Shown: positions 26,423 through 28,151 of the stretch, one piece after another
Layout of the letters: each line of letters starts with the position of its first letter
Numbering within the stretch: position 1 is the stretch's first letter
Origin: Eutypella sp. D-1
Taxonomy: Eukaryota; Ascomycota; Sordariomycetes; Xylariales; Diatrypaceae
Length of the DNA stretch: 64,000 nucleotides
Assembly (NCBI GenBank): GCA_023313575.1
Contig: JAJTTP010000004.1
Span: forward strand, 806,001 to 870,000
Reading direction: 5' to 3'
Translations under genes and position numbers: made by a program
The notes under the pieces: generated by a model
Databases searched by the model: none
The model's input: only the letters and a program-made list of their open reading frames with translations
Told to the model about the DNA's origin: nothing

Positions 26423-28151
26423 ATGAGCTGTGCGTGCCGAACTCTCTCAAAGCTGACAGCATTGGGCTCACGACATCGTAGTACTATTATAAACAACTAT
26501 TCGCCGATTACATCACCATCCACTATCACCAAGTTCTCAGGGCCTAGGTCTGCTCTGATAGCATCGTTATTGTCGTCGCGATGCATATCAACCACATTCC
26601 AACTACGTAAAACTGAGAGTACCGGGGAGACGCCCAGGCAGACGAACCAGAAGGACCAGGATGCTCAAGAAGAGCATGCCAGGGCTGACATTGGCATTGC
26701 CGCCAAGCAGCAGATTAGACGGCCATGGCAGAGAGAAGGCGCCGATGAGCCTCCGGTAAGCCAGAACCGGAAGGATATGAACAAGACTATGGAAAAAGGT
26801 AAGGCTTTCCTTCGAGTTTTTTTCATGGTAGTCTCGGCAGCTTTTATGGTACTGACCATTGTCATATAAAACAACAGGGAAACTCCTCACAACTCCGACG
26901 CGCCTCCTAAAGCTGATCCTCCCCCTCCCCGTTGATGCGCTGCACGACGAGCAAGGAAATAAGGGAGAGTATCGCGCTATCGCCCAGAACGAGGACATAC
27001 AGCCACTGGCTCTGCTCATCCACCCGCAGCAGCCTCTATCCTACCTAGAGCGTTTGATCCAGGCAGAGCTTCCGCCTGTGCGGGACCTCGAGGGCCGCGA
27101 GAAAGTTCCTACTGTGTACTTCCTAGCGGAGGGTAGCGAGCGGGACGAGACAGGCCGGAAGCGTGGTAGTGGAAGTGCCGGTGCTGGGGTAGACGACACG
27201 GGCTCGGGGCTGGGTCACCTCGGCGCGGACACGCCGCAGGAGCACAAGGATTGGGTGCGGTGGAGCAGCAGCACGGAGATCGGCGATTTTATCCGGGACG
27301 CCGCGAAGGGTCGCGAGTTCGCCATCGAGATAGACGGTCTCAATGCTGAGGTTCGCGTCGGTGTCCCCAGCTTCGGCGACCGCACTCACTACATGCGCAT
27401 GCGTCTGCGGCGTATGTCGCACCGTATCGAGCAGCAGTCCCGCATCAAGCGTGAGTGCGACTTGCTCGCACACCGTGGTGCCCATCTCCTTGCCAAGGCC
27501 GGTTTTGGTGCCCTTACTGTTTGGTGGGCCACCGTCTACTTCGTCACGTTCCACACCGATGCCGGTTGGGATCTCGTTGAACCTGTCACTGTTCGTACCT
27601 ACACTCCACCTTTTATTATACCCAACTGGAGCATCATGCTGACTTTGTGCAGTGTACGTATGAACGCTGAGATTCCGCCCGCTAGGAAACTGAAATGACC
27701 GGAGCTCCAGGTTTTGTTTGACACGTAGGCTAACGCATATACAGACCTCGCTGGCCTGACAACAATCATGGGTGGTTACTTGTGGTTCTTATTCATCAGC
27801 CGAGACCTAAGCTACCAAGCGGCACTGAAGATCACCGTGTCGCGGCGGCAGAATGTGCTGTACCAGGCGCGGGGTTTCGACGTGCAGCAGTGGGAGGCGC
27901 TGGTACAGGATGCCAACGCCTTGCGGCGCGAGATCCGCACCGTTGCTGAGGAGTACGATGTCGAGTGGGATGAAGCCCGCGATCTCGGCGGCGAAGAGAT
28001 TGTCGAGGTGCTAGAGAAGGAAGAGGATCGCCGCAAGAAGGGTCTGGGCGTCAACGAGGACGGCGAGGGCGACGCCGCTGAGGAGAAGAACAGGAAGAAG
28101 GATAATAAGGAGGCGAAGGCGGACCCGAAGCATAAACCTGAGGGAAAGTGA
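26423..28151 (+). CDS. MCU: Mitochondrial calcium uniporter pore subunit
   Basis: Proposed exons are 26423-26798, 26878-27590, 27653 (one nucleotide) and 27745-28151, giving 498 residues. The N-terminus is rich in Ser, Thr and Arg and poor in acidic residues, as in a mitochondrial transit peptide. A soluble matrix domain follows (about 130-320). A helix rich in Arg and Gln (MRMRLRRMSHRIEQQSRIKR) leads into TM1 (about 333-352). The filter loop reads WDLVEPVT, the fungal form of the WDIMEPVTY motif, with D357 and E360 as the Ca2+-coordinating acidic residues. TM2 is YLAGLTTIMGGYLWFLFI (about 364-382), then a C-terminal coiled coil and a Lys/Glu-rich tail. The protein forms the inner-membrane channel for Ca2+ uptake. 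The join between filter and TM2 needs the one-base exon described separately; a simpler intron at 27595-27744 keeps frame but replaces Tyr with Val-His. Confidence 0.93.
27653..27653 (+). other. MCU: Candidate single-nucleotide exon (T) in MCU
   Basis: The upstream intron 27591-27652 starts GTTCGT and ends with branch point GCTGAC (A at 27642) and GTGCAG. The downstream intron 27654-27744 starts GTACGT and ends with branch point GCTAAC (A at 27733) and ATACAG. Only the base T at 27653 remains between them; with the following AC it makes TAC (Tyr), giving EPVT-Y-LAGL. Splicing from 27590 straight to 27745, removing only one of the two introns, or removing neither, leads to an early stop or lost frame. 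Confidence 0.6.

What the first reader, a model, noticed from the sequence alone, without database searches (positions are those of the whole stretch)
27588..27750. Single-nucleotide exon in the MCU pore, encoding the Tyr after the selectivity filter
The sequence reads WDLVEPVT, then two tandem introns, then LAGLTTIMGG. The family expects Tyr between them. Intron 27591-27652 and intron 27654-27744 each have a GT donor, a near-perfect RCTRAC branch point 10-11 nt from the AG, and normal fungal length. They leave exactly one base (T, 27653), which with the following AC makes TAC (Tyr). Skipping that base, or removing only one intron, shifts the frame or stops translation. The only in-frame alternative I found, one intron at 27595-27744, would insert Val-His in place of Tyr at the filter/TM2 boundary. 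One-base exons are extremely rare; one was described in Arabidopsis. Here it would sit in the most constrained part of a calcium channel, and skipping it could switch the protein off.
Basis: partly seen in the sequence, partly recalled or inferred. Interest (0 to 1): 0.85.

Follow-up and report, generated by a model that had tools for sequence, protein, structure and literature searches.

The report
One-base exon in fungal calcium channel
In a Diatrypaceae-like fungus, two back-to-back introns in the mitochondrial calcium uniporter gene appear to leave a coding exon of a single base, which completes a nearly invariant tyrosine beside the channel's ion filter; relatives show traces of the same arrangement, but no RNA evidence was at hand.

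Summary
In the one MCU gene found in this genome, exon EPVT ends in phase 0 at 27590 and exon LAGL starts at 27745 one base short of the frame. Of 50 in-frame GT/GC-AG parses (13 with one intron, 37 with two), one gives EPVT-Tyr-LAGL: introns 27591-27652 and 27654-27744 with exon T at 27653. No contiguous removal can make that Tyr. Of 268 homologues on hand that span the site, 263 have Tyr; the other 5 (Monosporascus, Diatrype) are gene models with 7-19 residues wedged in here. Unspliced ORFs of four relatives are all GTNCGT-compatible at the donor; three also admit branch point-YAG-T-GT, rarely reached by shuffles (2, 1, 4 of 1000). A one-base exon, probably shared by a Diatrypaceae/Monosporascus clade, is the best reading (0.88). 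Against: no RNA, relatives' DNA not seen, the first donor GTTCGT scores below all 29 training donors, and Eutypa lata is annotated with plain Tyr, structure unknown. One-base exons are in print (plant APC11, VPS55; Fusarium CYP621A, 2026): a new member of a known, very rare kind. A regulatory switch is not shown.

The parts
26423..26798 (+). MCU exon 1 (ATG 26423; predicted)
   Evidence: Open frame and homology of the joined 498-aa protein; the start codon is a prediction
26799..26877 (+). First MCU intron (GTAAGG ... ACTGAC ... CAG)
   Evidence: donor at or above 24 of 29 training donors
26878..27590 (+). MCU exon 2, ends ...WDLVEPVT in phase 0
27591..27652 (+). Intron A, 62 nt
   Evidence: GTTCGT donor, GCTGAC branch point, GCAG acceptor; donor reading GTNCGT possible in 4 of 4 unspliced relatives; donor and acceptor score weakly
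27638..27643 (+). Branch point of intron A, GCTGAC
   Evidence: 19 of 29 training branch points lower or equal
27653..27653 (+). Single-nucleotide exon T, first base of the Tyr codon TAC
   Evidence: Only parse of 50 that gives EPVTYLAGL
27654..27744 (+). Intron B, 91 nt
   Evidence: GTACGT donor, GCTAAC branch point, ACAG acceptor; 3' end readable in four Monosporascus models and P0237
27729..27734 (+). Branch point of intron B, GCTAAC
   Evidence: 29 of 29 training branch points lower or equal
27745..28151 (+). Last MCU exon, (T)AC-CTC-GCT ... to stop TGA 28149-28151

Best explanation
27653 is a constitutive single-nucleotide exon of the mitochondrial calcium uniporter (MCU) gene. Two short fungal introns, each with its own donor, branch point and acceptor, are recognised separately and removed in two splicing reactions, presumably one after the other because two spliceosomes cannot sit one base apart. 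The T left between them joins ACT to AC and gives ACT-TAC-CTC, Thr-Tyr-Leu, just behind the filter motif. The arrangement was probably gained in a lineage of Xylariales around Diatrypaceae and Monosporascus and kept by selection for the Tyr and the frame. Shown: the frame gap, uniqueness of the parse, conservation of the Tyr, disturbed junctions in relatives. Inferred: actual splicing, the order of the two steps, shared origin.
For: Of 13 one-intron and 37 two-intron in-frame parses only this one gives EPVTYLAGL, and no contiguous removal can, because the base after 27590 and the base before 27745 are both G. Tyr in 263 of 268 spanning proteins on hand; the 5 others are Monosporascus and Diatrype models with inserts exactly here; no Val-His form. 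Four unspliced ORFs of relatives read Val-Arg (GTNCGT-compatible) after EPVT/EPIT; in P0083, P0123 and P0307 RCTRAC-N-YAG-T-GTNNGT fits once, at 62, 88 and 62 nt, against 2, 1 and 4 of 1000 residue shuffles (CTRAC form: 0, 2, 14 of 1000). Strict motif 7 of 50,000 shuffles and once in 264 kb. The interrupted relatives fall in one set of 11 in a 42-row tree, support 95/89. All four solved fungal MCU chains that cover the site in the printed alignments have Tyr there.
Against: No RNA evidence: none of 106 hits is a spliced fragment of this species across the junction. Donor GTTCGT scores below all 29 training donors and below its rival GTACCT (1.64 against 2.38; 896 of 3674 GTs in the window score as high or higher), and acceptor A is weak (2 of 29) (small self-trained model started with a bias against T at +3). 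GTTNGT was seen 0 times among 43 candidate donors. Relatives' evidence is back-translated protein, not DNA: the base can also be C in P0083 and P0307, and P0123 admits another placement with A. P0083 is nearly the same species, so not independent. P0007 and P0220 do not fit the acceptor-side pattern. Eutypa lata, inside the set, is annotated with plain Tyr by an ab initio finder.
Confidence: 0.88

Rival explanations
1. One intron, 27595-27744 (donor GTACCT), is removed and the channel carries Val-His in place of Tyr.
For: In frame; its donor scores a little higher than GTTCGT in the small model (2.38 against 1.64), and the self-trained intron finder itself chose it.
Against: 0 of 268 spanning proteins have Val-His; 263 have Tyr. 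C at donor +5 is also poor (below all 29 training donors). It leaves the branch point, acceptor and second donor in the middle unexplained (7 of 50,000 shuffles).
Confidence: 0.05
2. One intron 27591-27728, or another in-frame parse, is removed and extra residues (ANAYTD and the like) sit at the pore.
For: In frame; public models of Monosporascus and Diatrype look like this.
Against: The acceptor at 27728 has no good branch point (best below all 29 training ones); no other family member has residues here except the five models in question.
Confidence: 0.03
3. A stwintron: one intron nested in a splice element of another, removed in two steps.
For: Stwintrons are frequent in the related Hypoxylaceae (PMC9024468: abstract start and one passage; PMC12403724: listing only). 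The interval is about twice the median intron of the training set.
Against: A nested pair removes one contiguous stretch, and no contiguous stretch here leaves TAC. 27590 is T, so there is no first G for a [D1,2] donor before intron A; 27745 is A, so there is no split acceptor G after intron B.
Confidence: 0.01
4. The frame gap is an assembly error or the gene is decaying.
For: Only one assembly of this genome was seen.
Against: P0083, from a separate public contig, reads the same intron with one residue changed in the 35-residue tail. Nine of ten relatives in the set of 11 are disturbed at the same site. The rest of the 498-aa protein is intact.
Confidence: 0.03

Closest known systems
One-nucleotide exon of CYP621A P450 genes in Fusarium (PMC12940212, 2026; parts 1 and 2 of 3 of the text seen, plus a word search)
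   Same: Sordariomycete fungus; one base between AG and GT of two short introns inside an invariant motif; omission breaks the frame; automatic gene models are wrong at the site; shared by relatives
   Different: Other gene and base (G, middle of a Gly codon); there transcript reads confirm splicing, here none were at hand
Single-nucleotide exon of APC11 in Arabidopsis (PMC4674806; part 1 of 3 seen)
   Same: One base flanked by AG and GT, needed for the frame
   Different: Plant, longer upstream intron (base 333 nt after the junction); proven there by constructs in protoplasts
1-nt microexons of APC11 and VPS55 across land plants (PMC8831610; 12 passages seen)
   Same: Conserved across a clade, mostly missing from annotation
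   Different: Plants; RNA-seq and RT-PCR support; VPS55 is also made in forms with and without the base
Stwintrons of Hypoxylaceae (PMC9024468; abstract start and one passage seen)
   Same: Two short introns so close that they must be removed in sequence, in Xylariales
   Different: Nested, no base retained; excluded here by the sequence
Fungal MCU channels with solved structures (6dt0, 6c5w, 6dnf, 6d7w)
   Same: Homology over most of the protein; Tyr at the same column
   Different: Their gene structures were not seen here

Membership tests
Spliceosomal single-nucleotide exons | One base between the AG of one intron and the GT of the next | tested here: met
   GCAG|T|GTACGT at 27649-27659
Spliceosomal single-nucleotide exons | Omission of the base breaks the frame | tested here: met
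   Skipping gives EPVT-TSLA-stop
Spliceosomal single-nucleotide exons | The arrangement is kept in relatives | tested here: inconclusive
   Protein-level traces fit in 3 of 4 unspliced tails and in Monosporascus models; DNA not seen; Eutypa lata unknown
Spliceosomal single-nucleotide exons | The base is present in mature transcripts | not testable with these tools
   No RNA data; no spliced fragment of this species among 106 hits
Mitochondrial calcium uniporter (PF04678) | Profile score over the curated cut-off | tested here: met
   78.6 bits against 30.8 for the spliced protein
Mitochondrial calcium uniporter (PF04678) | Filter motif WDxxEP followed by V/I-T-Y | tested here: met
   WDLVEPVTY after splicing with the one-base exon
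Stwintron | Inner intron interrupts a splice element of an outer intron, so that one contiguous stretch is removed | tested here: not met
   No contiguous removal gives EPVTYLAGL

The most novel reading that the evidence does not exclude
The intron pair entered the Tyr codon as one unit in the ancestor of this Xylariales lineage, and inclusion of the single base has become a control point: skipping or retention truncates MCU at the start of TM2 and lowers mitochondrial calcium uptake through decay of the message.
Probability: 0.1. Interest if true: 0.85.

Novelty: new member of a known kind. Interest (0 to 1): 0.55.

Why it matters
A one-base exon is the smallest exon possible and asks how the spliceosome handles two introns with no room between them. 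In the searches made here only APC11 and VPS55 of plants and CYP621A of Fusarium came up as nuclear cases. A case in the one uniporter gene found in this genome, right behind the ion filter and probably shared by a lineage, would show that such exons arise and last in fungi where a codon is under strong constraint. It would also explain why public MCU models of Monosporascus and Diatrype carry extra residues in the pore, and it suggests a search rule: a gap of one base in the frame inside an invariant motif, with AG-N-GT in an interval of double intron length.

Tried and rejected
Intron models: an open EM on 264 kb drifted into coding sequence and was discarded. A strict version (30 introns) was kept; one of its members, 27595-27744, lay in this very gene and was removed before scoring (29 left). 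Its starting scores disfavoured T at +3, so it is a rough guide; it does not favour donor A. A direct count of donors (24 acceptors, 43 candidate donors) was too small to judge GTTCGT.

Relatives that did not help: P0007 (Diatrype) has no AG before the AC in its model, and P0220 has no RCTRAC within reach. The acceptor-side pattern of Monosporascus and P0237 is weak alone: 151, 363, 330 and 270 of 2000 shuffles reach it for P0002, P0004, P0005 and P0006, and 106 of 2000 for P0237. P0122's ORF ends in a stop before the point in question. The third protein search, meant to find a spliced fragment of this species, gave exon-only ORFs for it (P0205-P0207, P0238, P0239) and no spliced junction.

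Stwintron, single-intron, assembly-error and decay readings: see rivals. That I found no earlier report of this exon rests, in the held open-access library only. One search also lists one-base exons in mitochondrial genes (for example PMC5436844, title only); these were not followed up.

Full report
What is there. The window is C34:806001-870000 of a 48.5-Mb genome. A search of that genome with PF04678 gives two matches, both exons of one gene in this window. The gene reads: ATG 26423, exon to 26798, intron 26799-26877, exon 26878-27590, intron A 27591-27652, exon T 27653, intron B 27654-27744, exon 27745-28151. The spliced protein has 498 aa, scores 78.6 bits against PF04678 (cut-off 30.8) and matches fungal MCU structures (6dt0: residues 60-489, E 6.6e-155).

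The frame problem. EPVT ends in phase 0; LAGL needs one more base before its AC. I listed the in-frame GT/GC-AG parses with introns of at least 40 nt and donors from 27555 on: 13 with one intron, 37 with two. A contiguous removal, nested or not, cannot give it, because the base after 27590 and the base before 27745 are both G. Skipping the base, or keeping intron A, B or both, gives a stop 4 to 35 codons after EPVT.

Chance. In 50,000 dinucleotide shuffles of the 154-nt interval, RCTRAC-N3-20-YAG-N-GTNNGT with both introns at least 45 nt arose 7 times (2 with T; 63 in a looser form). A bare AG-N-GT is common (6,335). In 264 kb of this genome, both strands, the strict motif occurs once, here, and the looser one three times, one of them here; a full tandem pattern matched only here, from two start points.

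The family. Three protein searches gave lists of 120 (of 1526), 120 (of 1385) and 106 proteins. Of 307 proteins on hand, one of them my own wrong-frame test P0001, 268 span the site: 263 have Tyr alone between EPVT/EPIT and LAGL or its variants, 5 do not, none has Val-His or ANAYTD; 39 do not span it. The five are Monosporascus (P0002, P0004, P0005, P0006) and Diatrype stigma (P0007), with 19, 19, 19, 7 and 15 residues in the gap. In the four Monosporascus models the stretch ends KLTPITD or KLTTITD, compatible with RCTRAC and an AG ending 11 nt later, then the AC of the Tyr codon: the 3' end of intron B read as protein. That pattern alone is weak (151 to 363 of 2000 shuffles). Such inserts are what a gene finder makes when it cannot place one base (inference).

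Unspliced relatives. Four ORFs run past EPVT/EPIT into the intron: P0083 (nearly the same species), P0122, P0123, P0307. All four go on Val-Arg, compatible with GTNCGT. RCTRAC-N-YAG-T-GTNNGT fits once in P0083 (intron of 62 nt), P0123 (88 nt) and P0307 (62 nt, as in the window), against 2, 1 and 4 of 1000 residue shuffles, and 0, 2 and 14 for the CTRAC form. P0122 stops after 57 nt; if the stop is TAG it closes a 60-nt intron whose branch motif ends 10 nt before, and nothing further can be read. By the code the base may be T or C in P0083 and P0307, and P0123 admits another placement with A. These are compatible readings, not DNA.

Kinship. In a tree of 42 exon-2 proteins the window, P0083, P0122, P0123, P0307, Eutypa lata, Diatrype stigma and four Monosporascus form one set of 11, support 95/89 (P0307 fills under half of the columns). 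Nine of the ten others are interrupted or disturbed at this site. The tenth, Eutypa lata (P0003), is annotated with plain Tyr; its genes came from ab initio Augustus (PMC3668001, one passage), so it may have a simpler structure, or the program placed the base. Outside the set, ORFs on contigs of 4 to 32 kb run through the site unbroken (for example P0073, P0077, P0082, P0084), so the introns look like a gain within this lineage; the nature of those contigs is not known to me. NCBI places Diatrype in Diatrypaceae and Monosporascus in Xylariales incertae sedis.

Signals. Against 29 training introns, intron B is good: donor GTACGT 8 of 29, acceptor and branch point 29 of 29 lower or equal. Intron A has a fair branch point (19 of 29), a weak acceptor (2 of 29) and a donor below all 29 (1.64; the rival GTACCT is also below all 29, at 2.38). 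The model is small, self-trained and was started with a bias against T at +3. This is the main argument against from the sequence; the donor reading shared by four relatives outweighs it in my judgement. Lengths of 62 and 91 nt are ordinary (5-95%: 52-137); 150 nt is not (1 of 29).

How it works. Most likely both introns are recognised separately and removed one after the other, leaving T to complete TAC. The order is unknown; neither removal destroys the other's sites. MCU's Asp and Glu of the DIME motif form the two carboxylate rings at the pore entrance (PMC6347451, two passages); in this protein the Tyr follows the filter Glu by four residues. Nothing here shows regulation. A regulated microexon is on record in Trichoderma virens Xlr2 (PMC11121469, start of abstract only), so a switch is not far-fetched.

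What is known. One-base exons are in print for plant APC11 (PMC4674806, part 1 of 3), plant APC11 and VPS55 (PMC8831610, passages) and Fusarium CYP621A with transcript reads (PMC12940212, parts 1-2 of 3), which calls itself the second example and the first in a fungus; it does not mention VPS55. No paper on this exon turned up. So: a new member of a known, very rare kind.

Noticed in passing
P0002, P0004, P0005, P0006 (Monosporascus), P0007 (Diatrype stigma): Public MCU gene models with 7-19 residues between EPVT and LAGL in place of Tyr; probably annotation errors caused by this junction.
   Followed up: partly
P0245, P0249, P0250, P0253, P0262, P0263: In ORFs of other fungi the homology begins at (R)DLVEPVTY or the like after unrelated residues, as if an intron lay just before the filter Asp, eight codons upstream of the site here.
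   Followed up: no
P0306 (570-nt contig): An ORF that joins a pyridoxamine-phosphate-oxidase-like stretch (PF01243) to an MCU pore segment; perhaps a chimeric contig.
   Followed up: no
P0054, P0114, P0120: MCU homologues named 'putative amino acid permease protein' (Rosellinia necatrix) or 'siderophore biosynthesis protein' (Colletotrichum) in public records.
   Followed up: no
window 28011-28559 (-): A 182-aa ORF on the other strand overlaps the end of the MCU gene.
   Followed up: no
window 127-1644 (-), 3378-4562 (-), 8755-11247 (+), 17562-19091 (-), 21766-22614 (-), 32870-33772 (+): Neighbouring ORFs match GH20, WD40 repeats, XMAP215/Stu2 TOG, SAPS, fructosamine kinase and lipoxygenase families; ordinary fungal genes.
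   Followed up: no
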